Shown here one piece after another: positions 9,470 to 29,183 of a stretch of DNA of 64,000 nt. Every line of letters begins with the position of its first letter. The stretch's first letter is position 1. Origin of the DNA: Mucilaginibacter tundrae (GTDB lineage: Bacteria > Bacteroidota > Bacteroidia > Sphingobacteriales > Sphingobacteriaceae); the NCBI RefSeq assembly GCF_013408825.1, contig NZ_JACCBZ010000011.1, positions 73,953 to 137,952 of the forward strand. Direction: 5' to 3'. The notes under the pieces are model-generated. The model was not told the DNA's origin, did not search any database, and saw nothing but the letters and a program-made list of their open reading frames with translations. Position numbers and translations under genes: made by a program.

Positions 9470-9766
9470 ATGTCTGTATCTGCTCCATTCAATTTAAATA
9501 CGATTATTCAGCGTAATGAAAATAATTTTTTGGCAAATTCATTAGGTGATGAAACCGTAATGATGGATATGGACAATGGTGAATACCTGGGTATTAATAG
9601 TGTGGGTACTGATATATGGAATTTGCTGCAGGAACCTATATCTGTACAGGAACTGATCAAAAAAATGCTTGATATATATGAGGTTAGCGAAGAAGAATGT
9701 ACTGCCGAAATAAATGCCTTTTTAAGCCGTATGATCAAACAGAATATGCTGGTTGTTCTGAAATAA
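9470..9766 (+). CDS. PqqD-like lasso precursor recognition protein (B1), set 1
   Basis: 98 residues, the size of stand-alone PqqD/RRE proteins. The pattern LGDETVMMDMDNGEYLGINSVG followed by IWNLL and a C-terminal helix pair (VSEEECTAEINAFLSRM) is the PqqD fold: a three-stranded sheet plus helices that binds leader peptides. Followed 43 bp later by a B2 peptidase gene, this is the split B1-B2 arrangement of lasso-peptide loci, so PQQ synthesis is not implied. It should bind the W-x-x-P-x-I leader motif of the precursor at 12,327. It shares the segment 'GDE.VMMDM..G.Y..(I/L)N' with the second B1 at 15,082. Confidence 0.88.
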   Translation: MSVSAPFNLNTIIQRNENNFLANSLGDETVMMDMDNGEYLGINSVGTDIWNLLQEPISVQELIKKMLDIYEVSEEECTAEINAFLSRMIKQNMLVVLK

Positions 9767-9809
9767 TAATCATTTTTTGGCAAATCGCGGTGGCTGTTAA
9801 AAATACAAT

Positions 9810-10253
9810 ATGAATTTAATTCGCAAAGTAAAAACTTTCGCTGCCTATCCGTTATCAATTAAATTGTTGTTTGCAGAAGCCCTGATCACCTCAGTAGGGG
9901 TTAAATTAACGCTTAAATTTTTCCCTTTTAAAAGGGTTATGAATTGGCTTGGCACTGCCCGGCGAGAAAGTGAAAGAGACGAAAGCCCATCAACATTATT
10001 AAAAAGAAAACAAATAAAAACCGCTTTGCAGCTTTGTAACCGCTACGCGTTTTGGCCAACGGAGTGCTATACTTTATCACTTACGGGCAAGTTGCTGCTA
10101 AAAAGAAGAAATATTGACAGCACTATTTATATAGGGTTTAATAAATCAGAAGACGGGAAATACAAGGGGCATGCCTGGTTAAGGGCTAATGATACTTACA
10201 TCTCAGGCATTAAGGAAGCAAGGGCATTCACGGTTCATTCATTATTTAGTTAA
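9810..10253 (+). CDS. Lasso peptide leader peptidase (B2, transglutaminase-like), set 1
   Basis: 147 residues, typical for lasso B2 cysteine proteases. The catalytic Cys is C86 in FWPTECYTLSL, His is H121 in GHAWL, and an acidic residue follows in NDTYISG (D128). These form the transglutaminase-type triad that cuts the leader from the core peptide. N-terminal residues 11-40 are hydrophobic, as often in B2 proteins. It lies downstream of a B1 gene and convergent with the cyclase gene at 10,278, 24 bp away. Confidence 0.88.
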   Translation: MNLIRKVKTFAAYPLSIKLLFAEALITSVGVKLTLKFFPFKRVMNWLGTARRESERDESPSTLLKRKQIKTALQLCNRYAFWPTECYTLSLTGKLLLKRRNIDSTIYIGFNKSEDGKYKGHAWLRANDTYISGIKEARAFTVHSLFS

Positions 10254-10277
10254 TAGCATGGCAAATATTAATCAACT

Positions 10278-12188
10278 CTAATGCCATTCGGGATTTTTTT
10301 CCAGCCATCTTAACAATTCCATTGAGGGTATGTTATTGGATTTAACCTTATGTAAAGCGGATTGGTCATCCTTTTTTATTTCCGAAGCATGTTTTGCTTT
10401 TTCTAAAATAGCATCTTTATTTTTTAATAAAGGATGATCCGTTCGCTGTAAAAGATCTATATACTGGTTCCAGTTATACTTATTTAACATTAAAAATGGA
10501 GCAACGCTGCCAAACTTGCTGTCTCTTTCCATTATAATAGGTGGTAAATATTGTTTAACGGCCTGCCTGTAGGTAGTACGGGCAAGTTCGCCGTCATATT
10601 TAAGATAATTAGGCATTGAAAGGTAAAACTGGGCCAGTCTTATATCGGCCATCGGGAAACGGGGCTCTGTTCTGAAATGCAATCCATAACGCGTTTCACT
10701 TTCCAGCCTTTGATTAACCTGTGGTTTAAGCAGCCGATATTTTTGTGTATGTCTGTAGCTTTTAAATTGTTCTTTATAATTTACATCCTGCCAAACGTTC
10801 TCTCTGTAATTTCGCTTGTATTTATTCGGAATATGATATATTTCAAGTGCCTCGTTCATCGCTGACCCGTACCTTTTAAATAATATTTTTAAACGATGCA
10901 GGCTGTATTTTAAAGGGTAAGGAAGTAATGGTTCCAGCTTATTTAAGCCGGGATCCTTTTTTTTGGCCAGGAAATATTTAAGATATTGATTTTTATCCCT
11001 GTAGTCGAGAAAATAATATTTACCCCGGTAGGTAACCAGTTCATCACCCGGAAAACCAGATAATAAGGTGCGGATATCATATTGCAAAGCGGCCTTTTTG
11101 ATCGGCAATTGCCATAAAGGGTTCCATCGTTCCATACCATCATTAACAAAAATTGAAAAATCCATTTCTTCAACATGATCTTTGAAGGCGGGTTCAGTTA
11201 TATAAATGGGATCTTTAATTTGATTATAGGCTGTTACGGCATCAATATATTTCCGCTCATCAAATTTGTTTATATTTTCGTCAAAAACACCATCAGGCAG
11301 CGTATTTGACAACGTGAACAAACGCTTGTTCTTTTCTTTCAAAAAGCGATTAGCTGCACCTGTTATGGCAGATGAATCCATTCCTCCACTTAATTCAACA
11401 CCAACTGGAAAATTTGACCGGGTACGGCATTTTACCGCCTCATTAAAAAGACGAAGTAATTCCTCGTAATATGCTTCTTTGGACGGTAGTGTTATCTCCG
11501 TTTCGGTATCAAGGGTCCAATATTGTTTTAATATCGATGGTTTTCCTGTAGCTGATACTATAAGGGAATGAGCAGGCGGCAGGCGTTTTATCTGCTGGTA
11601 TAATGTAGTATCTGTGCTTTGTTCTGGTCTGCTTAATAGCTGATTATAAAAAAACTGCTTATTAATGGTTTTATCAACGTCGGGTACTGTAAGTATCCCT
11701 TTTTTTTCACTGGCAAAAACAAAAAAACGATCGTCTGAATAGTAAAAAAATGGTTTAACACCCAGGTGATCTCGTGCGCAAAAAAGTTGCTGCCTGTTCT
11801 CATCCCAAATGGCAAATGCAAAATCGCCTATTAGATATTTAACGCAATGCTCGGCATATTGCTCATATGCCTTCAAGATCAGGCTGCTGTCTGGTATAGT
11901 TTTGCGGAGTAAGTGTGGTATATTAAGCCTGGCAAATAGTTCGTCACGATTGTCAATGCGGGCATCGGCTGTTATAGATAGCTTACTTTCGGGGTTATAA
12001 TATGGTAACTTTTCATGAAGCGATTCGGGGGTATTATATAACATTAGATGCCCCAGGCCGGTATGATGATTGTGCCACAGACCCGAGTCATCGGCATTCC
12101 AATGATTTAATACAATTTCCATCGGCACAAGATCACGCTCCTGCACTATTTCTTTATTAATATTTATTCTTCCGAATATAGCGCTCAT
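10278..12188 (-). CDS. Asparagine-synthetase-like lasso cyclase (C), set 1
   Basis: 636 residues. It has an N-terminal glutaminase-like domain beginning MSAIFG and a C-terminal synthetase domain with the PP-loop SGGMDSS (about residue 266). Position 2 is Ser, not the Cys required for glutamine hydrolysis, which is usual for lasso cyclases: they adenylate an Asp/Glu side chain and close the macrolactam with the peptide's own N-terminus rather than ammonia. The neighbours (divergent precursor 138 bp away, B1-B2 downstream) support this over asparagine synthesis. It is paralogous to the cyclase at 18,136. Confidence 0.88.
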   Translation of the reverse strand: MSAIFGRININKEIVQERDLVPMEIVLNHWNADDSGLWHNHHTGLGHLMLYNTPESLHEKLPYYNPESKLSITADARIDNRDELFARLNIPHLLRKTIPDSSLILKAYEQYAEHCVKYLIGDFAFAIWDENRQQLFCARDHLGVKPFFYYSDDRFFVFASEKKGILTVPDVDKTINKQFFYNQLLSRPEQSTDTTLYQQIKRLPPAHSLIVSATGKPSILKQYWTLDTETEITLPSKEAYYEELLRLFNEAVKCRTRSNFPVGVELSGGMDSSAITGAANRFLKEKNKRLFTLSNTLPDGVFDENINKFDERKYIDAVTAYNQIKDPIYITEPAFKDHVEEMDFSIFVNDGMERWNPLWQLPIKKAALQYDIRTLLSGFPGDELVTYRGKYYFLDYRDKNQYLKYFLAKKKDPGLNKLEPLLPYPLKYSLHRLKILFKRYGSAMNEALEIYHIPNKYKRNYRENVWQDVNYKEQFKSYRHTQKYRLLKPQVNQRLESETRYGLHFRTEPRFPMADIRLAQFYLSMPNYLKYDGELARTTYRQAVKQYLPPIIMERDSKFGSVAPFLMLNKYNWNQYIDLLQRTDHPLLKNKDAILEKAKHASEIKKDDQSALHKVKSNNIPSMELLRWLEKNPEWH

Positions 12189-12326
12189 TATGTGTGTGTT
12201 GCAAACTCTAGAGTAAATTGGACTAAGGAATTCCTTCGGGTAAATTGTTAAATTAATATATTAAATTAAGTTATTTGAAATAAATAAACTTTTTACTAAA
12301 TTGGCTTTTAATATATTAAAATAAAA

Positions 12327-12509
12327 ATGATGACAAATCAACCTAAACCCACAATGGAAAAAAACGAAACTGGTAATAAAAAAATTTGGAAAAGCCCTAC
12401 AATAGAAATAATTGGTCAGGATGCAGTTCAGAGCGGGAGTGTTACAGGAACAGAAGGTAAACATTTTACGCTGACTGGGAATCCTTACATTGGCGGGTCA
12501 ACTTCGTGA
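12327..12509 (+). CDS. Candidate lasso peptide precursor (A), set 1
   Basis: 60 codons. The leader contains KKIWKSPTIEIIG, matching the Y/W-x-x-P-x-(L/I)-x-x-x-G recognition motif of lasso leaders, with Trp21, Pro24, Ile26 and Gly30. A glycine/threonine-rich segment with Glu43 follows and then a tail with His46, Phe47, Tyr54 and Ile55. The best core guess starts at Gly37, giving a 7-residue ring closed on Glu43; a start at Ser36 gives an 8-residue ring. No Thr is at -2, so the cut site is uncertain. The C-terminus is Ser (GGSTS), a fit for C-terminal Ser kinases. In-frame ATGs at 12330 and 12354 are alternative starts. It is divergent from the cyclase gene. Confidence 0.8.
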   Translation: MMTNQPKPTMEKNETGNKKIWKSPTIEIIGQDAVQSGSVTGTEGKHFTLTGNPYIGGSTS

Positions 12510-12541
12510 TCGATAAAATAAAGTATCTTATAACTTGTTAA

Positions 12542-13405
12542 TTAAAGATAATCATATAATTCCATATATTTTTTATGGATTGATGTAATATCATTGATTT
12601 GCTCTGAATTTAATTCATTTTCCCAATTACCAGCCTTTCCTTTTCTGAAAAAGGAAGGGCTTCCAATAAATTTTTCTTTAAAGCCCTTCTCTTTCTCTTT
12701 TTTCTGTAATTGTTCAAAGCTACTGGCTATTATTGCTGCTTCAATTTGTTCTTTTGTAGCAGTTATCCCCATAAAATTTACTGCTTTGCTAAAAGCTGTA
12801 AGCGTATCGGCTATCATATCCTCGTATCTTATTAACAAAACCGGAAACGGTAGGTTACTTGTCCAGCTTTTTACATGCCCGCTCCAGCTTAGCATTAATT
12901 GTTTAAACTGGTTATATATATTTAAATTATTGCTTTGTTTTGCCAGGAAGCCATTTTCATTGCTCATCAACGTAATGGTTTGATCAATGGTACTGTTATT
13001 ATGATTGGCAAATGAACCTACGACATCTAAGGGATTGCGGATAAAATATATGGCACATCTTGTACATTCAGTCGGAACTATAGGCTGGTTATCCTGGTTA
13101 TAGGTGTAAGCATCATGAATTTTGACGAACAAATTCTCTTTTTCATAGGTCTTTTCCAGGTTTATAAAAACCTCCGGCAGTAATACTTTCACTTCCTCGT
13201 CGTAAAGATAAGTTGAATCGAGGTCAGTAAAATTATCAAATACTGGTCGTGACGAAAATATACCATCTGTCTTCATTTCATTAATATCCAGTTCGCCCTC
13301 ATTCAGCAAAGCAGTTAAAAATGCCCTAAACCAAGTGTTTCCACTTTTTGGATAAGATGCAAGCCAGATAATTTTTTTAGCCTTATCAATGTCATTATTG
13401 TCCAT
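12542..13405 (-). CDS. Sulfotransferase, tailoring enzyme 1
   Basis: 287 residues, a cytosolic sulfotransferase-family protein. The PAPS 5'-phosphosulfate loop is YPKSGNTW near residues 18-25, the 3'-phosphate site is RNPLDVVGS near 120, and the C-terminal RKGxxGxW motif is intact (FRKGKAGNW, about 260). The family moves sulfate from PAPS to an alcohol or amine. Its start overlaps the kinase gene upstream by 11 bp, so the two are co-translated. Given the context it probably acts on the lasso peptide, but the target is not shown by sequence. Confidence 0.85.
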   Translation of the reverse strand: MDNNDIDKAKKIIWLASYPKSGNTWFRAFLTALLNEGELDINEMKTDGIFSSRPVFDNFTDLDSTYLYDEEVKVLLPEVFINLEKTYEKENLFVKIHDAYTYNQDNQPIVPTECTRCAIYFIRNPLDVVGSFANHNNSTIDQTITLMSNENGFLAKQSNNLNIYNQFKQLMLSWSGHVKSWTSNLPFPVLLIRYEDMIADTLTAFSKAVNFMGITATKEQIEAAIIASSFEQLQKKEKEKGFKEKFIGSPSFFRKGKAGNWENELNSEQINDITSIHKKYMELYDYL

Positions 13406-14315
13406 TTGCGGTAAAGTTTAATTCAACTAAAGAAACTAATTGGGTAATGGTGTTTCGAGATTCAACTCTGCTTATATCATATACCGGGGTGTTTGCGGTT
13501 ATTTTTGATATTATATCAAAATGAATACCTCGTTTTTTCATGGAATTCATTTGAACAGGATGCTGGTTATTTCTTTGTATTTCGCGGAAAGCCGCAATGG
13601 AACTCAATTCCTTAATTTCGACTTCGATATTTTTATTTAATTTACGCAGTATAAAAATTCGCTTTATAAGTTTCGGTTTTATATTAAACTCGTCATGGCA
13701 AAAGCGGGCGTATTTAGGTAATTGAGGGCGAATTTTATTATCATCTTCCGGTATTTCAATACCTATTTTTTCAAAGCTATCTCTCCATAGGTGGATAGAA
13801 GGGTAAGATGAATAAGCATATACCTGCCCATTACTTTTATCAGCTTTCAACACGCATAAATCGTCCGAAAATAGCTTATAGCCTTTTTGCTGCAGCATTG
13901 CTACCGTAGTTGATTTTCCTGTTCCTGAACCGCCGCAAAATAAAATTACCCCATCTTCGTGTTCAATAGCTGATGCATGTAATGGGATCAAATCACGCTG
14001 GTGTAAAACAGCCGGCATTGCATTGGTCAACAAAAACAGCCTGATGCTTTTTTCATCAGCACCTGTCATGGGGTCTATAATAATCCTGTTGCCATCAGTT
14101 ACATAATAATTAGCAATATTTAAAAATTTAAGTAAGTATTTTGTAGGGCTGATAGATACTCTTGCCCGGTTTATTACATCTTCACCAATTAGTATTTGCG
14201 GGGTGATGCCAATACTGATATTTACATCGGGCAGATTGGGGAATTCGAAAGGTAAGAGTTCAGGAAATTCTATTTCGGATGCAATATGTAATCCAAATCC
14301 CCAGTAATTATACAT
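13395..14315 (-). CDS. HPr-kinase-like lasso peptide kinase, copy 1
   Basis: 306 residues. Walker A is GGSGTGKST (residues 128-136), preceded by LHASAI (His113) and followed by LFSDDLCVL near 150, the order seen in HPr kinase/PEPCK-fold proteins. It begins YNYWGFGL, a start shared with the two other copies here. True HPrK regulates sugar uptake, but in lasso loci this fold phosphorylates the C-terminal Ser of the precursor (PadeK, ThcoK). Both precursors here end in Ser. The gene overlaps the sulfotransferase gene by 11 bp. Confidence 0.82.
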   Translation of the reverse strand: MYNYWGFGLHIASEIEFPELLPFEFPNLPDVNISIGITPQILIGEDVINRARVSISPTKYLLKFLNIANYYVTDGNRIIIDPMTGADEKSIRLFLLTNAMPAVLHQRDLIPLHASAIEHEDGVILFCGGSGTGKSTTVAMLQQKGYKLFSDDLCVLKADKSNGQVYAYSSYPSIHLWRDSFEKIGIEIPEDDNKIRPQLPKYARFCHDEFNIKPKLIKRIFILRKLNKNIEVEIKELSSIAAFREIQRNNQHPVQMNSMKKRGIHFDIISKITANTPVYDISRVESRNTITQLVSLVELNFTANGQ

Positions 14316-14419
14316 TTATACAGATTGATTATAGAAAAGTTATACTACAATAATAAGCAAATTCAATTGATATATAGTTTTACTATTTTAGTGGAATCAT
14401 TTTCATTAGTAGATCTTTT

Positions 14420-14992
14420 ATGGAAAACAATTCGTGTATTATCTATACTGATTTTTTAGAGGACGATGTTAATTCAGAACTCTATAATCATACTATATCC
14501 ATTTCGGAAAAGTTTTCCCAAACAAAGCTTGGAAAAGGGATAATTAATGAAAAATGGAGAAAATCAAATGCCATTATTTCAAACGATTATTCTAAGTTTA
14601 GCGAGATAGTAAAGGAAAAAATCATTGAGAATTTTGTTGAAATATGTGAAAAATTAAAAATTGATATTTTTGATATTAAACGCATTGAAACGCATCTTAC
14701 CAGCCATAATAATGGCGAGTTTTATAAACCACACATAGATACGGGTACAGGAAAAATGGCAAGCAGGGTTATAACTTTTGTTTATTATTTTCATTCTATC
14801 CCTAAATTATTCACCGGCGGGCAGCTTCTTTTCCTTAAAAACCAGCCCCGGCCACTTATTGTAGAACCGGCCAATAATTCCATCGTTTTCTTTAATTCAT
14901 CGCTGGTGCATGCCGTACATCCGATAAATTGCCCTGACAAAAAATTTGAACACGGACGTTTCACTTTAAACGGATGGATTCATAGGAAATAG
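14420..14992 (+). CDS. 2OG-Fe(II) oxygenase (prolyl-4-hydroxylase-like)
   Basis: 190 residues with a complete facial triad: PHIDTG gives His105 and Asp107, VHAVHPI gives the distal His (164 or 167), and Arg180 in GRFTLNGW is placed to bind 2-oxoglutarate. The fold is the double-stranded beta helix of P4H-like hydroxylases. Lasso loci sometimes carry such enzymes that hydroxylate the core (for example Asp beta-hydroxylation), so peptide tailoring is the likely role. It stands alone between the kinase/sulfotransferase unit and the second B1 gene, 90 bp before the latter. Confidence 0.82.
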   Translation: MENNSCIIYTDFLEDDVNSELYNHTISISEKFSQTKLGKGIINEKWRKSNAIISNDYSKFSEIVKEKIIENFVEICEKLKIDIFDIKRIETHLTSHNNGEFYKPHIDTGTGKMASRVITFVYYFHSIPKLFTGGQLLFLKNQPRPLIVEPANNSIVFFNSSLVHAVHPINCPDKKFEHGRFTLNGWIHRK

Positions 14993-15081
14993 CACCTACC
15001 GACCTGAATTGTTTAATGTAATACTTTTATTGCAATTGAATTTTTCTAAAAAAAATAATTGCAGAGTACATATATTTGATT

Positions 15082-15375
15082 ATGTTAAATGATGAAAGCC
15101 TAACCTTAGAAACAGTACTTCAAAAAAATACCCAAAATTTGCTGATCAGTGAGGTTGGTGACGAATTGGTAATGATGGATATGGAAAAAGGAAACTATAT
15201 TAATCTGAATAAGATTGGCCGTATTATATGGGAACAAATTGAAAATCAGATAACAGTAATTGAGTTAATTAATTTATTAACAAACCGTTTTGATGTGCAA
15301 AAAGATGAATGTACTAAGGATACACTGGAATATTTGCAGAAAATGTATGATCAAAATCTTTTATCAGTTAAATAA
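15082..15375 (+). CDS. PqqD-like lasso precursor recognition protein (B1), set 2
   Basis: 97 residues from the ATG at 15082. A TTG two codons upstream is a weaker option. GDELVMMDMEKGNYINLNKIG then IIWEQI and a C-terminal helix (KDECTKDTLEYLQKMYDQNLL) repeat the pattern of the first B1 at 9470. It is presumably the leader-binding partner of the second B2 at 22,023 and cyclase at 18,136, though these are on the opposite strand several kb away. A TATATTTG string overlaps the start region. Confidence 0.85.
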   Translation: MLNDESLTLETVLQKNTQNLLISEVGDELVMMDMEKGNYINLNKIGRIIWEQIENQITVIELINLLTNRFDVQKDECTKDTLEYLQKMYDQNLLSVK

Positions 15376-15701: not shown

Positions 15702-16274
15702 ATGGATAATTACATTGGAGAAATCAAAGCTTTCCCTTTTAATTTTGTACCTGTCGGCTGGATCCCCTGTGACGGGAGGCAGCTGTTGATTCAACAGTAC
15801 ACTGTATTGTATGTCATTCTTGGCAGTCTTTATCAGCCAGCAGGCGTTCCTGTAAGCCCAACAACATTTTATGTACCTGACCTGCGTGGGGTTGTACCAA
15901 TTGGCTTTAACCCGGCAGGCCCTTTAAACACTATTCAGGGTCAAAAAGGTGGTGAAGAAACAGTTACGCTTACGCAAACCCAGATACCATCGCACAATCA
16001 CAACATACAGGCAGAGATATTTAGCCATACGTCTAATCCAGCCCAGTTAACCAATCAGCCAGGCAATACGGTTTATCTTACAAATGCAAGTACAGTGAGC
16101 GGAACAACTGTGGATAATATATATACCTATGCTGCTTCAAGCTCACCTGGTACAACGATGAATACTATTGCACTTGGTTTCACAGGTAATGGCGGAGCTC
16201 ATGAAAATAGGATGCCTTATCTACCGATGAATTTTGCGGTATGTGCTGAAGGTCTATATCCATCAAGACCATAA
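15702..16274 (+). CDS. Phage tail-collar domain protein (Mdp-like), copy 1
   Basis: 190 residues. The N-terminus (IGEIKAFPFNFVPVGWIPCDG, then YTVLYVILGSLY) and a central LPS-like motif (FYVPDLRGVVPIG) are the tail-collar domain (PF07484) of phage fibres and of the microcystin-dependent protein family. IPSHNHN and AHENRMPYLPMNFAVCAEG at the C-terminus are also typical. No signal peptide. It is the first of three tandem paralogues that share a transcript and end at a strong terminator. No other phage genes surround it, so a prophage is not supported. Its role in a lasso locus is unknown. Confidence 0.85.
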   Translation: MDNYIGEIKAFPFNFVPVGWIPCDGRQLLIQQYTVLYVILGSLYQPAGVPVSPTTFYVPDLRGVVPIGFNPAGPLNTIQGQKGGEETVTLTQTQIPSHNHNIQAEIFSHTSNPAQLTNQPGNTVYLTNASTVSGTTVDNIYTYAASSSPGTTMNTIALGFTGNGGAHENRMPYLPMNFAVCAEGLYPSRP

Positions 16275-16323
16275 TAGATCAGTTTTCAAATTAACAAAAT
16301 CCTAACCTCTTAAAAATAAAAAA

Positions 16324-16887
16324 ATGGATAATTATCTTGGCGAAATACGCATATTCCCGTATTCACATATTCCCAGCGGCTGGTTGCCCTGTAACGGACA
16401 AACCCTGCAATCGCAACAATATCAGGCCCTGTTTTCACTCCTGAGCAGCATATATGGCGGCAATGGCTCAACTAATTTTAACCTTCCTAATTTAAACGGA
16501 AAAGTAATAGTTGGGCAGGGTACAAGTACAACAGGTACGGCTTACCCTATAGGTGTCGCTGGCGCAGGTGGGTCAGCAAGCGTGGTGCTTGGCACAGCAA
16601 ACATCCCCTCGCATAACCATCTTGTAAATGCTGCAACCACATACGATTCAAACAACGCAACCAACGAGCTATTGGGTAATCCTAACGTTCCTACAAGCGC
16701 TACACAACCCCATATCAACGTAGCTGGTGCACAAATAAATTTGTATGGCCCCGGGCCTGCAAATACAACACTTAATGCAGGCAGCATAACTACTACCGGT
16801 ACTGCAGCGGCACACGAAAACCGCATGCCTTATATGGCTTTAATTTATTGTATTGCAACGTCAGGTCAGTATCCAACAAGATCTTAA
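16324..16887 (+). CDS. Phage tail-collar domain protein (Mdp-like), copy 2
   Basis: 187 residues, about the same length and order of motifs as copy 1: GEIRIFPYSHIPSGWLPCNG, YGGNGSTNFNLPNLNGKVIVG, IPSHNHL and AHENRMPYMALIYCIA. Copy 2 has the canonical YGGxGxxxFxLPxL string, which copy 1 lacks. It lies 49 bp after copy 1 and 46 bp before copy 3. The middle Thr/Asn/Ala-rich segment differs strongly between copies, as in variable tips of fibre proteins. Confidence 0.85.
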   Translation: MDNYLGEIRIFPYSHIPSGWLPCNGQTLQSQQYQALFSLLSSIYGGNGSTNFNLPNLNGKVIVGQGTSTTGTAYPIGVAGAGGSASVVLGTANIPSHNHLVNAATTYDSNNATNELLGNPNVPTSATQPHINVAGAQINLYGPGPANTTLNAGSITTTGTAAAHENRMPYMALIYCIATSGQYPTRS

Positions 16888-16933
16888 CCGCATATAGAAA
16901 TCAAATCAATTATTAACTTAAAATTTAGTTTAT

Positions 16934-17467
16934 ATGAATTATTATTTAGGAGAAATCATTGCTTATGCAGGCAATTATGTACCACAATATTTTCAATTGT
17001 GCGATGGATCGATGTTAAACATTAACGAATATCAGGCGTTATATACTTTATTAGGAACTACCTATGGCGGCGGAGCAGGAACTTTTGCTGTACCTAACCT
17101 AAAGAGCATTGTAGTTGTAGGTACAGATTCAGGCACCTCATATCCATTGGCTGCAACAGGGGGAGCAACTACCGTTACGCTGGCAGAAGCAAATTTGCCT
17201 GTACATACGCATGCCTTAAACGCAAGTACTGCTGCTGCAACTGCTGCTTCGCCAGCCGGCGCCTTCCTTGCTGCTTCTAATAGTCCAACCGGTTACCCTA
17301 ATGTATCTGCTTATTCAGCACCACCGGCAACACCGTCAACCATCTCGGGGATCCTGAATGCTGCATCCATTAACAACACAGGTGGCAGTGCTCCACATGA
17401 TAATATGATGCCATACCTTACTATTAATTATATGATATGCACCCAAGGGCTATTTCCAACTTCCTGA
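16934..17467 (+). CDS. Phage tail-collar domain protein (Mdp-like), copy 3
   Basis: 177 residues: GEIIAYAGNYVPQYFQLCDG, YGGGAGTFAVPNLKSIVVVG, LPVHTHALNAS and APHDNMMPYLTINYMICTQG. The usual 'P.GW..C.G' is changed to PQYFQLCDG, and IPSHNH to LPVHTH, making this the most divergent copy. It is the last gene of the three-gene unit, followed 46 bp later by a hairpin terminator. Confidence 0.85.
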   Translation: MNYYLGEIIAYAGNYVPQYFQLCDGSMLNINEYQALYTLLGTTYGGGAGTFAVPNLKSIVVVGTDSGTSYPLAATGGATTVTLAEANLPVHTHALNASTAAATAASPAGAFLAASNSPTGYPNVSAYSAPPATPSTISGILNAASINNTGGSAPHDNMMPYLTINYMICTQGLFPTS

Positions 17468-17803: not shown

Positions 17804-17947
17804 TTAACTGCCTGTAATGCCACTGTCTGATTGTACATCCCCAACACCTTGTGTCTCTGTTTCTATTGGTAAAAAATTCACTTCAGGTTTGCTCCAGTTT
17901 TCTTTAAGCTGATCGTTGTTGTTCGTAGTGGTGATTTCAGTTTTCAT
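17804..17947 (-). CDS. Candidate lasso peptide precursor (A), set 2; short unannotated gene
   Basis: 47 codons plus stop on the minus strand (ATG 17947-17945, TAA 17806-17804). The leader has NWSKPEVNFL, with Trp18, Pro21 and Val23 in the W-x-x-P-x-hydrophobic motif of the first precursor. Thr32 is at -2 of a possible core start at Gly34, and Asp41 would then close an 8-residue ring, leaving a 14-residue core (GVGDVQSDSGITGS) that ends in Ser. The tail has only one bulky residue (Ile), so threading is uncertain. VQSDSGITG resembles VQSGSVTG in the other precursor, which allows another alignment. It lies 188 bp downstream of cyclase 2 and has its own -7 box. Confidence 0.75.
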   Translation of the reverse strand: MKTEITTTNNNDQLKENWSKPEVNFLPIETETQGVGDVQSDSGITGS

Positions 17948-20148: not shown

Positions 20149-20157
20149 GCAATTATA

Positions 20158-21009
20158 TTATAAATATTGATACCTTTTCATTACGCTGTGATGCTTTTGG
20201 GTAATATATTCAACCTGCGATGCAGCCAGTTCATGTTCCCAACCATTCATTTCCCCTTGTCTAAAAAAAGCTTGGTTTTTGGCGGAAAATCTTTCACCAA
20301 ACCCTTGTTCCTGTTCTTGTTTTTTCAGACTTGAAAAACTACTGGCCTCAATGGCCTTTAACAATTCATTATCATTGTACTTACCCGGATCGATATGCTG
20401 CATTAATTGCTTAAATGTATCAAAAGTATTAATAAGCATATCTTCATAGCGCACTGTAAAAACCGGGAATGGAGGCCTTAATGTCCAGCTTTCTACATGA
20501 AAGCTCCAGTTGGAGATGAATTGCCTGAACTGACTATCAGTATTAAGGTTATTATTTTGATTAAAAATGGCATAATCGTCATCAGCTAATCTTTTAACTG
20601 CATGGTCAATGGTTATACTACTATGATTAGCCAGCGAGCCGGCTATATCCAAAGGGTTTCGAACGAAATAAATGGCACAAAATGTACTTTCGGTTGGGAT
20701 AATGGGTTGATTTAAATGGCTAAATGTATAAGCATCATGTACTTTTACATAAAACCTTTCTTGTTTGTAAGAAGCAGCTAAATGGTTATACATTAGCGGT
20801 TGTGTTATTTTGGCTTCTTTATCAGTAAGGTATGTTGAGTTGAGATCTGTATGGTTAGTAAATATTTGACGCGAAGAAAACATTATTTTTTCCATTTGAT
20901 TAATATCAACTTCGCCATTATTCATTAAAGCTGAAAGGAAAGCCCTGAACCACGTATTGCCGCTTTTAGGATATGATGCCAGCCAGATAATTTTTTTTTG
21001 CAGATCCAT
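20158..21009 (-). CDS. Sulfotransferase, tailoring enzyme 2
   Basis: 283 residues, a close paralogue of the enzyme at 12,542. The PAPS 5' loop is SYPKSGNTWFRAF near residues 14-26 and the 3' site is RNPLDIAGS. The C-terminal motif has changed from RKGxxGxW to FRQGEMNGW, losing the Lys and the second Gly that normally help bind PAPS. It may therefore have weaker cofactor binding or a new role. It starts 12 bp after the kinase-2 stop, inside the second minus-strand lasso operon. Confidence 0.82.
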   Translation of the reverse strand: MDLQKKIIWLASYPKSGNTWFRAFLSALMNNGEVDINQMEKIMFSSRQIFTNHTDLNSTYLTDKEAKITQPLMYNHLAASYKQERFYVKVHDAYTFSHLNQPIIPTESTFCAIYFVRNPLDIAGSLANHSSITIDHAVKRLADDDYAIFNQNNNLNTDSQFRQFISNWSFHVESWTLRPPFPVFTVRYEDMLINTFDTFKQLMQHIDPGKYNDNELLKAIEASSFSSLKKQEQEQGFGERFSAKNQAFFRQGEMNGWEHELAASQVEYITQKHHSVMKRYQYL

Positions 21010-21020
21010 ATTTTGTTTTT

Positions 21021-21938
21021 TTATATAGCAAAAAAATCTTCAGATTCTAAAAATGCAATTATTTGTCTGATCGTATCCCTTTTAGCAGGCCGTTGAATTT
21101 TGATAATATTTTTACAAGAGGCAAGTAAATTTGTTAATGCATAAAAATAATTATTTCTTTTTTGCGTCCCGTTTATTTGAAATGGTCTAAATATATTTTT
21201 TTCCAGCTCTGCTAATACCCCGATTGTTGACAGCCTGGATGTCTGGATCTTTTCAAGTTGATTCTTTTTTTCTAAAAATATAATCCCTTTCACCAAAGCC
21301 GGATCTTTAGTAAATCCTGAATGAAAGGATAATCCATATTTAGGAAAATCAGGACGTAACATCAGCTCATTACCTGGTTTATTGATGCCTAATTTATCAA
21401 AACTGTCTTCCCATAAATTAATCACAGGATAAGAGGGTGTTACCCATGCCTTATTATCAGTATTATCAGGGCCAAATACGCACATATCGTCACAAAATAC
21501 TCGGTGCCCGCGGGCTTGCAATGCAGCGGCAAGCGTGGATTTTCCTGAACCGGGCTGCCCCAGGAACAGGCAAACCCCGCCACTTATATGTACGCCTGAA
21601 GCATAAAAGGGAATCAGGTTACGTTGAAGCAACAAGGCCGAGATTACGCTGTCCAGTAAAAATAACCTGACAGATCTATCGTCTGATGCAGCATCAGGCT
21701 GAACGGTTATCTCGTTTCCATTACGCACATAGTAAGCCGCAACACCCGTTATAAGTATCAGATATTCCCTTTCATTTATAGAAACATTTAAAGCGCTCAC
21801 CACATTATCTCCGTTTATTTCATCAGGAACGATACCTCTTCTGATGGCAATATCAGGTTTTGAAAAATGATGAGGAACCAATTCAGGGAAAGCTATTTCT
21901 GATTCGATATTCAACCCAAAGCCCCGGTAATAATTCAT
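21021..21938 (-). CDS. HPr-kinase-like protein, copy 2 (divergent)
   Basis: 305 residues from the ATG at 21938. This start was chosen because the encoded MNYYRGFGL matches the starts of both paralogues; an upstream in-frame ATG at 21974 would add 12 residues. Walker A is GQPGSGKST and FCDDMCVF follows. The LHASAI/FHASAI segment of the paralogues is FYASGV here, so the conserved His is replaced by Tyr. The protein may have lost kinase activity or changed its acceptor. It lies between B2 of set 2 (84 bp) and sulfotransferase 2 (12 bp). Confidence 0.78.
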   Translation of the reverse strand: MNYYRGFGLNIESEIAFPELVPHHFSKPDIAIRRGIVPDEINGDNVVSALNVSINEREYLILITGVAAYYVRNGNEITVQPDAASDDRSVRLFLLDSVISALLLQRNLIPFYASGVHISGGVCLFLGQPGSGKSTLAAALQARGHRVFCDDMCVFGPDNTDNKAWVTPSYPVINLWEDSFDKLGINKPGNELMLRPDFPKYGLSFHSGFTKDPALVKGIIFLEKKNQLEKIQTSRLSTIGVLAELEKNIFRPFQINGTQKRNNYFYALTNLLASCKNIIKIQRPAKRDTIRQIIAFLESEDFFAI

Positions 21939-22022
21939 TTCGTTAAAGTTTACTTGTAATAATTCAAGCGGCAACCAAATTTATCACTATTACTTAAAAT
22001 ATCAGATTATTATGTCTGTTTA

Positions 22023-22448
22023 TTAGCTTTCAAACCTGCTTAGAACTGTATAATTATCTAATTTACCATCACCTGTAATTATTACGGCATTACTTTTTAG
22101 CCATGCATGCGCAAGTAATTTATTGGTGTCGGTCTTGTACACTCCAAAGTAAATAACACTTTTAAAACCTCTTCTTTTCAGCATTATTTTAGCAGCCAGC
22201 GCCTGTTCAAAACATTTTGCCCGCCACGGGGAATAATGAGCGCCCCTTAAAATTGACATGCTTATTTTTTTAAGAACGTTATCATCATTGACTGGGAAAT
22301 TGCTTTCAAGGTTATCAGTTTTTACTTTGCCCATTAGCGGCACAATTTTTTTGAAAGGAAAAAACACCAGCATTATCCTCGCGAAAGCAAGTAAAAACCA
22401 GGCCTCGGTAAAGAGAACATATTCCTTAAACGTAACGGATGGTTTCAT
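22023..22448 (-). CDS. Lasso peptide leader peptidase (B2, transglutaminase-like), set 2
   Basis: 141 residues. Cys79 in WRAKCFEQALAAKIMLKRRG, His114 in LAHAWL and an acid residue at Asp127 (ITGDG) form the transglutaminase-type triad. The segment LKRRGFKSVIYFGV corresponds to LKRRNIDSTIYIGF in the set 1 enzyme. It cuts the leader from the core after binding via B1. It starts 3 bp after the stop of kinase 3, a tight operon junction. Confidence 0.88.
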   Translation of the reverse strand: MKPSVTFKEYVLFTEAWFLLAFARIMLVFFPFKKIVPLMGKVKTDNLESNFPVNDDNVLKKISMSILRGAHYSPWRAKCFEQALAAKIMLKRRGFKSVIYFGVYKTDTNKLLAHAWLKSNAVIITGDGKLDNYTVLSRFES

Positions 22449-22451
22449 TAA

Positions 22452-23387
22452 TTATAATAATCCTTCCAAATGTAGCAATAGTTGTTCCCTGGTTTCACCT
22501 GCCGGCCTGGTGATTTCATAAACTTTGCTGGTTTTTAGTAGCCCTGTAATAACACCAAAACGGATGTGTTTTAAATTATCACCCTTTAACAACTTAGCCC
22601 TGTAAACCTGTTCGTTAACAGCAACAAAGGCTTCTCCTCCTGATAATTCTCTGATTTTTAATTCAGTTCCCTCGCCTTTTTTTAAAACAATAATTTTGTC
22701 AATAGGATAGCTCTTTTTGTTGAAGCTATTATGAAAAAAGATACCATATTTATCCATTCCGGGTCTCACCAAAAAAGATCTGTCGTTAAACATCTCATGC
22801 TGCAGGTTATTTAACGTATCATTCCACAATTTGATCATTGGGTATGAAGCTGTTGCTAATATATCTCCCGAGCCATTTTTTTGCAGCACTACAACGTCAT
22901 CGCTAAAAATAGTGTATCCTTTTTTTATTAATCCCGCAGTAAGTGTTGATTTTCCGGCACCTGAGTCGCCAGTAATTAACAACAGACGATCATCCCTGAT
23001 AATGGCAGATGCATGAAATGGTAATAGGTCTCTTTGTAAAAGGATAGCAGCCATAACCGTGGCAAGTACAAAAAGCCTTACACTACGCATTTCGGTACTA
23101 TTAATATCAGGCTCAATAATTATACTATTGCCGTTTGTTGCATAATATCTTGCAACGTTTTTTACTTCAAAAGTGAGTTCTGTCTCATTAAGCAAGTGAA
23201 AAATATGCTTTCGATGGTTAAGGGTCGACTCATTATGAAAAGGCATTTTTCCAAGAACGATGGTTACGTCCGCCTTATCAAATTCAGAAGGCAATAATTC
23301 GGGAAATTCAATTTCTGATGAGATATTTAATCCGAACCCCCAATAATTATAATTAGACTTATGCTTAGTTAGGGAAGTTTTGTTCAT
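22452..23387 (-). CDS. HPr-kinase-like lasso peptide kinase, copy 3
   Basis: 311 residues. It shares the YNYWGFGLNISSEIEFPELL start, FHASAI with its His, Walker A GDSGAGKST and TIFSDDVVVL with copy 1, so its catalytic set looks intact. It is the first gene of the minus-strand operon kinase 3-B2-kinase 2-sulfotransferase 2-cyclase 2-precursor 2. The likely role is phosphorylation of the C-terminal Ser of a precursor, by analogy with PadeK/ThcoK. It is divergent from the ABC transporter gene (191 bp). Confidence 0.82.
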   Translation of the reverse strand: MNKTSLTKHKSNYNYWGFGLNISSEIEFPELLPSEFDKADVTIVLGKMPFHNESTLNHRKHIFHLLNETELTFEVKNVARYYATNGNSIIIEPDINSTEMRSVRLFVLATVMAAILLQRDLLPFHASAIIRDDRLLLITGDSGAGKSTLTAGLIKKGYTIFSDDVVVLQKNGSGDILATASYPMIKLWNDTLNNLQHEMFNDRSFLVRPGMDKYGIFFHNSFNKKSYPIDKIIVLKKGEGTELKIRELSGGEAFVAVNEQVYRAKLLKGDNLKHIRFGVITGLLKTSKVYEITRPAGETREQLLLHLEGLL

Positions 23388-23513
23388 TAGTTTTTAAAAT
23401 CGCTGCAATTAACAAAAAATGTGTAAACAATATACCGTAAATTATATTGTCTTTTTTTGTAATATATCGATTATAAAATTTCTTTAAGTTTAAATGTGTT
23501 TGCAAAAGTTTTA

Positions 23514-23521
23514 TAGGTTTG
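23514..23521 (+). promoter_or_regulatory. -7 box of the ABC transporter gene
   Basis: TAGGTTTG fits TAnnTTTG, 57 bp before the ATG at 23579. TTTG occurs 11 bp upstream, closer than a normal -33 element. Confidence 0.35.
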
Positions 23522-23578
23522 TTAGTATTAATATATAACTATGCAGTTAAGCCAACAGCCTTTAAAATTATTTCTTAA

Positions 23579-25351
23579 ATGAAGATTAAAGATAACATCA
23601 ATTATTTAAGAAAAGATCTGCTAAGGATATTCCTACTGCTATGGAAAGCCGATAAACATACTGCTTTTATTAATATTACTTTACAGTTTGCACAGGCGTT
23701 ACTGCCTGTTATCTCTTTATACTTCATTAAAGCACTTATTGACGCTTTAACAAAAGGTCACAGGCAATTTACGGATGTTATACCGATAATTATCGCATTT
23801 GGCGTTGTACAATTCTTATTATCCCTTGTTACCCAATATGCAAGTTATATAACTACTATCCATCAGGAAACACTAACAGACTATTTATCAGGTGAAGTTT
23901 TAAGTAAAGCCATTGATGTTGACTATGCCTATTATGAAAACCCCGACTATCATGATACCTTACATCTGGCGCAACAGCAGTCTTTATACAGAGCTACTGC
24001 GCTGTTAACTAATTTTAATTCTTTATTGCTCAATAGCTTATCGCTGATTTTTTTAGTGGCGTTCTTTTTTAGCCTGCACTCAACATTTGCTTTATTATTC
24101 ATGGTATTGTCTATTCCGCTTGCAATAATTAAATGGTATTCCGGCTTTTGGTTATTAAAGTTAGAAAGGCAGTTTGCTCCATTGGAAAGAGAAGCAAATT
24201 ACCTGCACCAAACGCTAACCGGGGTAAGTTTTGCTAAAGAAGTGCGCGTTTTTGGATTTGGCCAGTCATTTATTACCAAATTTAATAACATACGAAAATA
24301 CATCCATCATGAAAAAAAGAAATTGCACATCAGGCTAACGTGGTATAGTTTAATAGCCGAATCGATGGAAATTATTGCCATGACTTTTATTTTTGGTTTA
24401 TTAGCCAAATATACATGGGAAAAGACAATTACAATTGGCGTTTTTGTAATATATATCCAGGGCTTTCAGCGATTGCAAAGCACTTCAAAAAGCTTTTTAC
24501 AATCTGTAGTGCAAATTTTTCAGCAACGAATTTTCTTAAAAGACTTTTTTGCTTTTTTTGATATCGGGGTAAACAAAAATACTCTGGCTACTAAGCCATT
24601 TCCCGCCAAACTGGAAGGCATATCTGTGAGAAATTTATCTTTTACTTATCCCCAAACGAGTAAAACGGTATTAAAAGACATATCAATAGAATGTGCTCCG
24701 GGTAAAATTATAGCTATAGTTGGCGAAAATGGCTCGGGCAAATCAACACTTGTAAAGCTATTGGCACGTTTATACGAAGCTGAAGCAGGGGGGATAAAAA
24801 TTAATGATGAAGATATAAATGATATTTCAATAGACGATTTTAGAAATCATACTATATTTCTATTTCAGGACTTTGAAAAGTATTTTTTAACTATTGAAGA
24901 AAATATCATTCTTGGCGCTGATAAAAGTGACGTTCCGGATGCCTTGGAGAAAGCCGCAAAATTATCCGGCGCTCATCCTTTTATTTCAAAACTTTCAAAA
25001 GGATATAAAACCAAAATGGGTAGGTTATTTGAAGGCAGCGAACAAATTAGTGGCGGCCAATGGCAAAAATTAGTATTATCGCGTATATTTTATAAAAACA
25101 CTAAACTAGTAATTCTTGACGAGCCAACCAGCGCTCTGGATCCTACGGCAGAGTTTGAACTATTTAACAATTTGAAGGATGAATTAAAGGAAAAAATAGT
25201 AATTCTTATTACTCATCGTTTATATAATTTAAAGATTGCTGATTATGTATATTTAATGCAGGATGGCAGAATAGCCCAAGAAGGCACCTTTGAAGATTTG
25301 ATAAACAAGGATGGCGCTTTCAGCAAAATGTATGAAGCACAAAAATTGTAA
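23579..25351 (+). CDS. ABC transporter, fused permease-ATPase (lasso peptide exporter, D)
   Basis: 590 residues: an N-terminal membrane domain with about six transmembrane helices and a C-terminal ATPase. Walker A is GENGSGKST (about 381-389), the signature is ISGGQWQKL (about 488-496), Walker B VILDEPTSALD (about 510-520) and the switch His lies in ILITHRL. There is no N-terminal C39 peptidase domain, which agrees with leader removal by separate B2 enzymes. It is the only exporter in the locus, so it probably serves both peptides and gives self-immunity. Confidence 0.88.
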   Translation: MKIKDNINYLRKDLLRIFLLLWKADKHTAFINITLQFAQALLPVISLYFIKALIDALTKGHRQFTDVIPIIIAFGVVQFLLSLVTQYASYITTIHQETLTDYLSGEVLSKAIDVDYAYYENPDYHDTLHLAQQQSLYRATALLTNFNSLLLNSLSLIFLVAFFFSLHSTFALLFMVLSIPLAIIKWYSGFWLLKLERQFAPLEREANYLHQTLTGVSFAKEVRVFGFGQSFITKFNNIRKYIHHEKKKLHIRLTWYSLIAESMEIIAMTFIFGLLAKYTWEKTITIGVFVIYIQGFQRLQSTSKSFLQSVVQIFQQRIFLKDFFAFFDIGVNKNTLATKPFPAKLEGISVRNLSFTYPQTSKTVLKDISIECAPGKIIAIVGENGSGKSTLVKLLARLYEAEAGGIKINDEDINDISIDDFRNHTIFLFQDFEKYFLTIEENIILGADKSDVPDALEKAAKLSGAHPFISKLSKGYKTKMGRLFEGSEQISGGQWQKLVLSRIFYKNTKLVILDEPTSALDPTAEFELFNNLKDELKEKIVILITHRLYNLKIADYVYLMQDGRIAQEGTFEDLINKDGAFSKMYEAQKL

Positions 25352-25380
25352 TTACACTTAAATTTACTTAAGTTTTAACT

Positions 25381-26577
25381 TTATCTCTTACTGGGTTTTA
25401 TTACAGATCTGAAAGGTTTCATGATATAATATACAAAAAAAAGTTTTTCGGATAGTTGTATTTCACTAAAATCTGTGGGCCCCGGAATAAAGCGAAATTT
25501 ACCGCATAGCCAATAAAATTTTATCTTTTGTAGAAAAGAATCCTGTAAAAGCGCTATGTTTTTAATGAATTTTACCATATTCTCTTTCTTAAAGTGAAAT
25601 ACCTCCTGTGAGCAAACCTGGTCGCGAAAATGCTTAACTATATTTTCCGGATCGTTAAAATCAGGTGCTTGCGGCAATGAAATGCCCATCAATTGTTCTG
25701 AGAGCATGTTACTTACGCTTAAAGCTTTTTTTAATTCGAAATTTGTAAAGCTGTTAGTTAATAAATTGCCGGAAGCATGTATGGAAGGCTGGCGAATGCC
25801 CTGGCTTATATCTATAATATTTTTTAAAAACTTAAAGGTATCTTTTATAGAATGATGAATTAACATTGCAGAAAAATGCGCGGCGGGATCTAATCCTCTA
25901 ATGTTAGTCTTAAAAAAAACTATTTGTTCATTTGCCTGATAAAGTAATGTATTGACTTTCGCATTTACGCCTACCTCATTTTCCGCAATAGCCCAGTGTA
26001 ATTCTACGTGAAAATGTCTGATGTTCCCTTTAAATTTATTGAAATTATAATCCTTAAAATAATCAAAATATTTTGCTCCCAGATATTGATAAATATCATC
26101 AAGCTCGGGGCTATAACCGTCTTCTTTCAAAATTTGTATAGCTGCCGGCAAATCATCCGGTTGTATAATTAAATCAATATCACTGTTTTCACGTGAAATA
26201 AGATCACCAAAAAACTGCTTTGAAAACGCTGTGCCTTTGTAGGGAATTACCTCTATATTGCTTTTTTTTAAAAGCAGTATAATCCGTTCTGTTTCAGCTC
26301 CCTGCTTCCAGTTTTGCAATACAACTTCTCTATACTCTGTAGCAATAAAATCCTTTAATGGCGCAGGAATGTTTAATTGGCCAATTATTTTATAAACAAT
26401 AGGCCTTACCTTGTGTATTTTGGATAAATAAATAAAATTTTCCCAATTAATTTCATTATCAGTTACAAAAGCTGTTAACTCATCTTGGGTGCTAGTTTCA
26501 AAAAACACACGGCAACTTAAAATAAGGGTTGCTATTTCATTGCCATAGCTTTTTTTAATATCGTTAATTGCAATCAC
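25381..26577 (-). CDS. Nucleotidyltransferase-family protein, putative lasso tailoring enzyme
   Basis: 398 residues resembling the uncharacterised nucleotidyltransferase family NTP_transf_5. The motif is YKGTAFSKQFFGDLISRENSDIDLII (about 115-140), with an acidic NSDIDL pair for metal binding. Proteins of this family occur in kinase-bearing lasso loci (padeN/psmN type) and have been linked to further modification of the phosphorylated C-terminus. It is convergent with the ABC gene (29 bp gap). The role is inferred from family and context. Confidence 0.78.
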   Translation of the reverse strand: MIAINDIKKSYGNEIATLILSCRVFFETSTQDELTAFVTDNEINWENFIYLSKIHKVRPIVYKIIGQLNIPAPLKDFIATEYREVVLQNWKQGAETERIILLLKKSNIEVIPYKGTAFSKQFFGDLISRENSDIDLIIQPDDLPAAIQILKEDGYSPELDDIYQYLGAKYFDYFKDYNFNKFKGNIRHFHVELHWAIAENEVGVNAKVNTLLYQANEQIVFFKTNIRGLDPAAHFSAMLIHHSIKDTFKFLKNIIDISQGIRQPSIHASGNLLTNSFTNFELKKALSVSNMLSEQLMGISLPQAPDFNDPENIVKHFRDQVCSQEVFHFKKENMVKFIKNIALLQDSFLQKIKFYWLCGKFRFIPGPTDFSEIQLSEKLFFVYYIMKPFRSVIKPSKR

Positions 26578-29168: not shown

Positions 29169-29183
29169 TAGGCCAACTATAAA

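What the first reader, a model, noticed from the sequence alone, without database searches (positions are those of the whole stretch)
9470..26577. Double lasso-peptide locus with two complete A-B1-B2-C sets
Two cyclases, two B1, two B2, two candidate precursors and one exporter lie in 17 kb, mixed over both strands. The sets are diverged paralogues, so this is not a recent duplication. Known family roles: B1 binds the leader, B2 cuts it, C closes the macrolactam, D exports. Two peptides sharing one exporter and a large tailoring set is unusual and, as far as I know, not described in detail for Bacteroidota.
Basis: partly seen in the sequence, partly recalled or inferred. Interest (0 to 1): 0.9.

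Follow-up and report, generated by a model that had tools for sequence, protein, structure and literature searches.

The report
Two interleaved lasso-peptide pathways
One bacterium carries, in a single 17 kb stretch, what look like complete gene sets for two different knotted (lasso) peptides, each with kinase and sulfate-transferring enzymes, wrapped around three genes that resemble virus tail tips and that also turn up beside such peptide genes in unrelated bacteria.

Summary
Window 9470-26577 encodes two complete lasso-peptide sets (precursor, B1, B2, cyclase). Their B1, B2 and cyclases are only 29-37% identical. The cyclases lack the glutaminase Cys2 and fall in separate clades, C1 with 8 relatives and C2 with 4 (both SH-aLRT 100). 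Both precursor types have relatives beside the matching cyclase type, though 3 of 8 set-1 relatives show none. Of 123 stretches examined (a few overlapping), only the window holds two B1, two B2 and two cyclases.

The kinase lies directly upstream of the sulfotransferase in 68 of 80 related loci; 71 of the 80 hold lasso genes. APS kinase, which makes the sulfate donor, lies near lasso B2 in 7 of 19 genomes searched.

Three ordered paralogues with a phage tail-collar domain (15702-17467) sit inside the locus. In the 79 genomes of those loci, 16 of 41 collar clusters lie beside the locus (0.16 expected; six phyla). No held paper joins the two terms.

A new variant of a known kind; the collar trio's role is open.

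The parts
9470..9766 (+). B1a: PqqD/RRE leader-binding protein, set 1
   Evidence: PF05402 E 1.8e-17; nearest to B1 of L028/L029, 125/124 bits
9810..10253 (+). B2a: transglutaminase-like leader peptidase, set 1
   Evidence: NF033537 83.9 bits, cut-off 33; Cys and His kept (72 of 72 B2 proteins)
10278..12188 (-). C1: lasso macrolactam cyclase, set 1
   Evidence: NF033535 439.7 bits against asn synthase 218.9; no Cys2; 9-row clade, SH-aLRT 100
12327..12509 (+). P1: lasso precursor, set 1; core from Ser36 or Gly37, only core acidic residue Glu43, C-terminal Ser60
   Evidence: ORF; 89% identical JGI homologue with an in-frame tail indel; P1-type precursors beside C1-type cyclases
12542..13405 (-). 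S1: PAPS-type sulfotransferase
   Evidence: PF00685 E 9.4e-27; best-scoring solved structure Teg12; conserved motifs
13395..14315 (-). K1: HprK-like kinase, H-K-D-D intact, overlaps S1
   Evidence: HprK-related models, weak and under cut-off; HKDD
14420..14992 (+). OG: 2OG-Fe(II) oxygenase, possible hydroxylase
   Evidence: PF13640 E 2.4e-15; homologue in set-1 relative L029 (251 bits)
15076..15375 (+). B1b: PqqD/RRE protein, set 2
   Evidence: PF05402 E 3.1e-17; nearest to B1 of L026/L046, 117/116 bits
15702..16274 (+). M1: phage tail-collar-domain protein, first of trio
   Evidence: PF07484 E 2.9e-16; PHROG tail families; its best hit in another trio is a third, not a first, member
16324..16887 (+). 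M2: tail-collar protein, second of trio
   Evidence: PF07484 E 1.1e-24; best fold matches are phage tail fibres, low-confidence model
16934..17467 (+). M3: tail-collar protein, third of trio
   Evidence: PF07484 E 3e-20; position-specific best hits in trios, 80 of 96
17804..17947 (-). P2: lasso precursor, set 2; T(-2)Q(-1)|Gly34, ring to Asp41 (position 8), C-terminal Ser47
   Evidence: ORF; relatives beside C2-type cyclases in L026, L046
18136..20028 (-). C2: lasso macrolactam cyclase, set 2
   Evidence: NF033535 374.4 bits; 5-row clade, SH-aLRT 100
20158..21009 (-). S2: PAPS-type sulfotransferase
   Evidence: PF00685 E 2e-21
21021..21974 (-). K2: HprK-like protein with Tyr in place of the catalytic His; probably not an active kinase
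   Evidence: YKDD, against HKDD in 103 of 117 homologues; long end branch
22023..22448 (-). B2b: leader peptidase, set 2
   Evidence: NF033537 91.6 bits; nearest to L046/L026 B2 (169/148 bits)
22452..23387 (-). K3: HprK-like kinase, H-K-D-D intact, set 2
   Evidence: groups with K of L026/L046, SH-aLRT 100
23579..25351 (+). D: ABC exporter, the only one in the locus
   Evidence: PF00005 E 1.3e-29; 869 bits to D of set-1 relative L050
25381..26577 (-). N: PF14907 nucleotidyltransferase (PsmN-type)
   Evidence: PF14907 E 1.3e-34; 455/442 bits to N of set-2 relatives L026/L046

Best explanation
Two separate lasso-peptide pathways of different ancestry have been interleaved in one locus. Set 1 is B1a, B2a, C1, P1, K1, S1, probably with OG, the collar trio and the exporter D. 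Set 2 is B1b, B2b, C2, P2, K3, with K2, S2 and the nucleotidyltransferase N. In each set B1 holds the leader of its own precursor, B2 cuts it, and C activates the acidic acceptor (Glu43 in P1, Asp41 in P2) and closes the macrolactam over the threaded tail. HprK-like kinases (K1, K3) phosphorylate the C-terminal Ser. The sulfotransferases add sulfate from PAPS to a hydroxyl of the peptide. N adds a hexose to the phosphate. One ABC exporter serves both products. Shown here: the genes, their family membership, the separate ancestry of B1, B2, C, K3 and N, the matching of precursor and cyclase types, and the K-S pairing. Inferred: threading, the modifications, the order of steps and the shared export.
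For: Profiles and catalytic residues. C1 and C2 fall in separate clades with single-set loci; B1, B2, K3 and N follow the same split. The 12 precursors that I recognised in the window and its set-1 and set-2 relatives all end in Ser, the residue that lasso HprK kinases modify (reviews PMC8498205 and PMC9266682, passages). K lies directly upstream of S in 68 of 80 sulfotransferase loci, and 71 of 80 hold B1, B2 or C. An APS kinase is present in 18 of 19 lasso genomes searched, and lies within about 20 kb of B2 on the same contig in 7 of 19, so the sulfate donor is available and often encoded nearby.
Against: K2 lacks the catalytic His, and the K beside S in M. rivuli has Asn there, so the kinase of a K-S pair need not act as a kinase. 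The K-S pair does not follow the set split cleanly: in M. rivuli, a set-2 locus, K and S are nearer K1/S1 (302/367 bits) than K2/S2 (199/306). P1 does not have Thr at position -2. No precursor was recognised in 3 of 8 set-1 relatives. P2 found only itself in the large protein search. In more distant kinase loci not every candidate precursor ends in Ser (L079, L082). NF033535 and NF033536 scores are under their cut-offs. The set-2 relative L046 has no recognised S, although its genome (G379) is one of the 7 with APS kinase near B2. The window genome's only APS kinase match is on another contig (C8). No product is known.
Confidence: 0.85

Rival explanations
1. Only one set is live and the other is being lost; the double locus is a passing stage, as with the third lasso locus of this genome, whose B2 is already broken.
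For: A third lasso locus on contig C3 has a B2 with stops. K2 has lost its catalytic His. Lasso loci are sporadic: B2 in 15 of 149 genomes of the genus.
Against: The core genes of both sets in the window are open and of the length usual for their families, with catalytic Cys/His of B2 and the H-K-D-D motifs of K1 and K3 kept. P1 has an 89% identical homologue that kept the frame through a tail indel.
Confidence: 0.12
2. The two sets work as one pathway: enzymes of the two sets act on both precursors (shared B2, kinases, sulfotransferases), so the locus makes a small mixed family of peptides. This is partly compatible with the best explanation.
For: The genes are interleaved (B1b between OG and the trio; D between K3 and N). 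There is one D and one N. G422 has two cyclases and two precursors with one recognised B1 and one B2. K-S pairs do not follow the set split.
Against: B1, B2, C and precursor types split into two lineages that occur alone in other genomes. Leader ends differ (TQ|G against VQ|SG).
Confidence: 0.3
3. The cyclases are ordinary asparagine synthetases, or make a non-lasso macrolactam.
For: They carry the same Asn_synthase and GATase domains; lasso model scores are under the curated cut-off.
Against: No Cys2. They score much better on the lasso model and sit with B1, B2 and lasso-like precursors.
Confidence: 0.03

Closest known systems
Paeninodin-type lasso clusters with HprK-like kinase (Firmicutes, Proteobacteria)
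   Same: A-B1-B2-C-D with a kinase for the C-terminal Ser; H-K-D-D motif in K1 and K3 (reviews PMC8498205, PMC9266682, passages)
   Different: Two sets in one locus; each with a kinase-sulfotransferase pair; a kinase homologue without His; collar trio
Pseudomycoidin cluster (PsmK, PsmN)
   Same: Kinase plus nucleotidyltransferase-like protein that leads to hexosylated phosphoserine (review passages)
   Different: Adds sulfotransferases and a second full set; relation of N to PsmN rests on the family name, not on an alignment; hexosylation not tested
Firmicutes lasso clusters with a putative sulfotransferase (Zhu et al. 2016, seen only through a passage of the review PMC8498205)
   Same: A sulfotransferase gene in a lasso cluster
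   Different: Here the K-S pair is followed across several phyla; no sulfated lasso peptide turned up
Phage tail-collar / T4 gp12-like receptor-binding tips
   Same: PF07484 domain; PHROG tail families; fold matches to phage tail fibres
   Different: Stand-alone 177-190 aa proteins in a trio; no other phage gene among the 20 proteins of the locus scanned with Pfam

Membership tests
Lasso peptide biosynthetic cluster | B1 (PqqD/RRE) protein | tested here: met
   PF05402 over cut-off for both; NF033536 73.7 bits, under its 80
Lasso peptide biosynthetic cluster | B2 transglutaminase-like peptidase with catalytic Cys and His | tested here: met
   NF033537 over cut-off; Cys and His in 72 of 72 B2 proteins incl. 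both of the window; third residue not tested
Lasso peptide biosynthetic cluster | Asn-synthase-like cyclase without glutaminase Cys2 | tested here: met
   Both begin MSAIFG; NF033535 439.7 and 374.4 bits, under cut-off 525, above TIGR01536
Lasso peptide biosynthetic cluster | Precursor with Thr at -2 of the core (feature recalled) | tested here: inconclusive
   P2: met (Thr32). P1: not met (Val34 or Gln35); P1-type relatives share Val/Ile-Gln/Lys there
Lasso peptide biosynthetic cluster | Asp/Glu acceptor at core position 7-9 (feature recalled) | tested here: met
   P2 Asp41 = position 8; P1 Glu43 = position 8 (from Ser36) or 7 (from Gly37)
Lasso peptide biosynthetic cluster | Threaded lariat product | not testable with these tools
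   Needs expression and MS/NMR
Paeninodin/pseudomycoidin-type tailoring | HprK-like kinase with His-Lys-Asp-Asp | tested here: met
   K1 and K3 HKDD; K2 YKDD, not met for K2
Paeninodin/pseudomycoidin-type tailoring | Precursor ends in Ser | tested here: met
   P1 and P2, and 10 of 10 recognised precursors of their set-1/set-2 relatives
Paeninodin/pseudomycoidin-type tailoring | PF14907 nucleotidyltransferase attaches hexose | not testable with these tools
   Gene present; activity untested
PAPS-dependent sulfotransferase | PAPS motifs (YPKSGNTW, K-x-H, RNP-x-D, C-terminal R-x-G...W; roles recalled) | tested here: met
   Conserved in alignment A2 of 12; YPKSG[NT]TW in 92 of 96 S proteins
PAPS-dependent sulfotransferase | APS kinase in the genome | tested here: met
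   G000:C8:148198-148641, E 1.2e-65
Phage tail-collar protein | PF07484 domain over cut-off | tested here: met
   59.6, 86.5, 72.4 bits, cut-off 24

The most novel reading that the evidence does not exclude
The tail-collar trio is a working part of these lasso systems: three ordered, position-specific paralogues form a hetero-trimeric, phage-tip-like protein that binds, displays or delivers the phosphorylated and sulfated lasso peptide, or shields the producer from it. That would be a hybrid of a RiPP with a tail-tip module, spread over several phyla and, as far as my searches go, not described.
Probability: 0.25. Interest if true: 0.85.

Novelty: new variant of a known kind. Interest (0 to 1): 0.6.

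Why it matters
If right, the locus is a natural test bed for how two lasso pathways keep their leaders, peptidases and cyclases apart in one cell. It points to a wide class of lasso peptides that may carry both phosphate and sulfate. It also ties lasso systems to an unexplained three-gene phage-tip-like module, which gives that module a testable context.

Tried and rejected
Recent tandem duplication: rejected, since the doubled core components are 29-37% identical and the sulfotransferases 50%, and the cyclases sit in different clades. True asparagine synthetases: rejected. Prophage remnant: considered because of the collar genes; Pfam scans of 20 proteins between 9470 and 27844 show no other phage gene, and collar genes recur beside lasso genes in other phyla. 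PHROGs were run only on the three collar proteins. Collar trio specific to lasso loci: rejected. Of 20 further collar stretches of the genus fetched, 19 hold no recognised B1, B2 or full cyclase; the collar loci already known to be beside lasso genes were not among those 20. A formyltransferase lies in 18 of 24 collar stretches (15 of 20 plus L029, L031, L054). Literature for the trio: no held paper has both 'tail collar' and 'lasso peptide'; the search on MdpB names listed unrelated papers among the 20 of 414 shown. The M2 model is weak past about residue 60 (mean pLDDT 68; TM-scores 0.40 or less), so the matches support only a tail-fibre kinship. Single or double loss of the kinase His could not be told apart on the tree. 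No insertion-site analysis of the locus was made. Two papers were opened to check for sulfated lasso peptides (PMC12325987, PMC13352647; term searches only) and showed none.
Full report
WHAT IS THERE. In order along the window: B1a 9470+, B2a 9810+, C1 10278-, P1 12327+, sulfotransferase S1 12542-, HprK-like K1 13395- (overlapping S1), 2OG oxygenase OG 14420+, B1b 15076+, collar-domain M1-M2-M3 15702-17467+, P2 17804-, C2 18136-, S2 20158-, K2 21021-, B2b 22023-, K3 22452-, ABC exporter D 23579+, PF14907 nucleotidyltransferase N 25381-.

ARE THE CYCLASES LASSO CYCLASES. C1 and C2 score 439.7 and 374.4 bits with the lasso cyclase model NF033535 and 218.9 and 204.5 with asparagine synthase. Both lasso scores are under that model's own cut-off of 525. 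Both proteins begin MSAIFG, so the Cys2 of working glutaminases is absent (the role of Cys2 is recalled knowledge). They are 29% identical. In a tree of 81 cyclases, C1 sits in a 9-row clade (SH-aLRT 100) with relatives in the family and in Sediminibacterium. C2 sits in a 5-row clade (100) with M. rivuli, G379 and the two cyclases of G422. The tree is a quick one, with warnings about long branches and letter make-up.

TWO LINEAGES, INTERLEAVED. Set 1 proteins match L028, L029, L031, L047, L049 and L050 best (L028 has no cyclase in its stretch); set 2 proteins match L026 (M. rivuli) and L046 best. N is closest to the set-2 relatives (455 and 442 bits, against 122 or less in the other loci scored in those calls). 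D is closest to the set-1 relative L050 (869 bits); the D and N of G422 were called only by HMM and not compared. The K-S pairs do not follow the split: in M. rivuli they are nearer K1/S1 than K2/S2. In the window B1b of set 2 lies between OG and the collar trio, and D lies between K3 and N, so the two sets are mixed rather than side by side. Of 123 stretches (the window and 122 loci, a few overlapping) only the window has two B1, two B2 and two full cyclases. Five have two or more cyclases of any kind (window, L090, L128, L134, L141; one of L134's begins MCGI like an asparagine synthetase) and two have two B2 (window, L048). The other stretches are at most 21 kb and many are cut by contig ends. 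G422 is the nearest parallel: two cyclases, two precursors, two K-S pairs, two formyltransferases, one collar trio, one recognised B1 and one B2.

PRECURSORS. P2 has the W-x-x-P leader motif (its role is recalled), Thr at -2, Gly at 1, Asp at 8 and Ser at the end. L026 has one such gene and L046 two beside C2-type cyclases. P1 has one acidic residue in its core, Glu43, so the ring runs from Ser36 (8 residues) or Gly37 (7). L031, L056, L057 and L058 carry P1-like precursors with Val/Ile-Gln/Lys before a small residue and Gly. L029 has a more doubtful one. None was recognised in L047, L049 and L050. A protein search found P1 itself and one homologue in JGI data, 89% identical, with a changed tail of different length and an unchanged end. 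P2 found only itself. The 12 precursors recognised in the window and these relatives all end in Ser. In more distant loci some candidates do not (L079, L082).

TAILORING. S1 and S2 are sulfotransferases with the PAPS motifs; the best-scoring solved structures for S1 are the glycopeptide sulfotransferase Teg12, a cytosolic sulfotransferase and Teg14. K is present in 76 of 80 and directly upstream of S in 68 of 80. B1, B2 or C is found in 71 of 80 and all three in 42 of 80. APS kinase is found in 18 of 19 lasso genomes searched (of 23 with a B2 match). In 7 of 19 it lies on the same contig within about 20 kb of B2 (G422, G444, G379, G297, G340, G135, G165), which I read off by comparing places. 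One of these, G379, has no recognised sulfotransferase in its 20 kb stretch, and in the window's own genome the APS kinase is on another contig. The sulfotransferases are therefore likely to have a donor, though nothing shows which group they modify. A review states that some Firmicutes lasso clusters hold a putative sulfotransferase (PMC8498205, passage), so a sulfotransferase in a lasso cluster is not new. I found no sulfated lasso peptide (listings; term searches in two papers).

THE ODD KINASE. Lasso kinases need His-Lys-Asp-Asp (review PMC9266682, passage). In my alignment 103 of 117 kinase homologues have it. K1 and K3 have it; K2 has Tyr for His. In M. rivuli the K beside S has Asn for His, while its K3 has HKDD (this locus is counted twice there as L026 and L055). 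K2 also has a long end branch. So in both close set-2 loci that carry S, the kinase homologue beside S looks catalytically dead, and it may serve S as a partner. In G422, which belongs to the wider C2 clade, the kinases keep HKDD. The tree does not tell whether the His was lost once or twice.

THE COLLAR TRIO. M1-M3 carry the phage tail-collar domain PF07484 and match PHROG tail families. The best fold matches of an M2 model are a cyanophage tail fibre and T4 gp12, but the model is uncertain past residue 60. Trios are ordered: for 80 of 96 proteins from 32 trios the best match in another trio sits at the same position (the window's own M1 is one of the 16 exceptions), which suggests an obligate three-part complex. 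They are not bound to lasso loci: 76 of 149 genomes of the genus have collar genes and 15 of 149 have B2. Yet 7 of those 15 have a trio within 30 kb of B2 on the same contig (G000, G014, G374, G388, G422, G165, G297; read off, the former with a cut list of places). The other 8 do not (in G340 it is 66 kb away). For the 80 sulfotransferase loci (79 genomes, about 338 Mb) I counted by hand 41 clusters of collar genes with at least one frame of 130-265 aa, leaving out 7 lone matches in longer frames. Sixteen of the 41 lie in the locus or, for L112, just beyond its end, about 10 kb from S. Two of the 16 are single genes (L084 and, at a contig end, L097). The loci cover 1.31 Mb, so 0.16 would be expected (one search gives a binomial tail near 2.5e-28, ignoring relatedness). 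Clusters on contigs that I did not match to a locus were counted as elsewhere. The 16 span Bacteroidota, Pseudomonadota, Thermodesulfobacteriota, Verrucomicrobiota, Cyanobacteriota and Walliibacteriota and fall in several separate cyclase clades. Still, 64 of the 80 loci show no such cluster beside them. In L056, L057 and G422 the order is trio, formyltransferase, cyclase on one strand. I take the association as shown and its function as open.

MECHANISM AND VERDICT. The best account is two lasso pathways with phosphate, sulfate and possibly hexose added, and one exporter. The double lasso gene content is close to certain; the modifications are inferred. A mixed, cross-acting pathway is the main rival. 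Novelty lies in the full double set, the K-S pair as a marker of lasso loci in several phyla, and above all the recurrent collar trio.

Noticed in passing
L025 (G000:C3:619-622 kb): A third lasso locus in the same genome with cyclase, B1 and precursor, but its B2 is interrupted by stops.
   Followed up: partly
L135 (G000:C3:19.5-20.9 kb): A second collar trio in the same genome, beside a formyltransferase homologue and without recognised lasso genes in the stretch.
   Followed up: partly
L141 and L155 (G422): A composite locus in another genome of the genus: two cyclases, two precursors, two kinase-sulfotransferase pairs, two formyltransferases, one collar trio, one recognised B1 and B2.
   Followed up: yes
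24 collar stretches (L029, L031, L052, L054, L135-L154): A formyltransferase homologue (PF00551/PF02911) is found in 18 of 24 collar stretches and stands between trio and cyclase in L056, L057 and L141.
   Followed up: partly
G422, G444, G379, G297, G340, G135, G165: APS kinase gene on the same contig within about 20 kb of the lasso B2 gene.
   Followed up: partly
L028 (G121): A set-1 type locus with B1, B2, K and S but no cyclase or recognised precursor in 20 kb: perhaps a remnant.
   Followed up: no
L027 (G135): Six precursor-like genes in a row before one cyclase, with differing cores; one has no acidic residue in its core.
   Followed up: no
window 28368-32870: A likely exopolysaccharide export region starts after the lasso locus (judged from the translations of 28368-31523, not by a profile search).
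   Followed up: no
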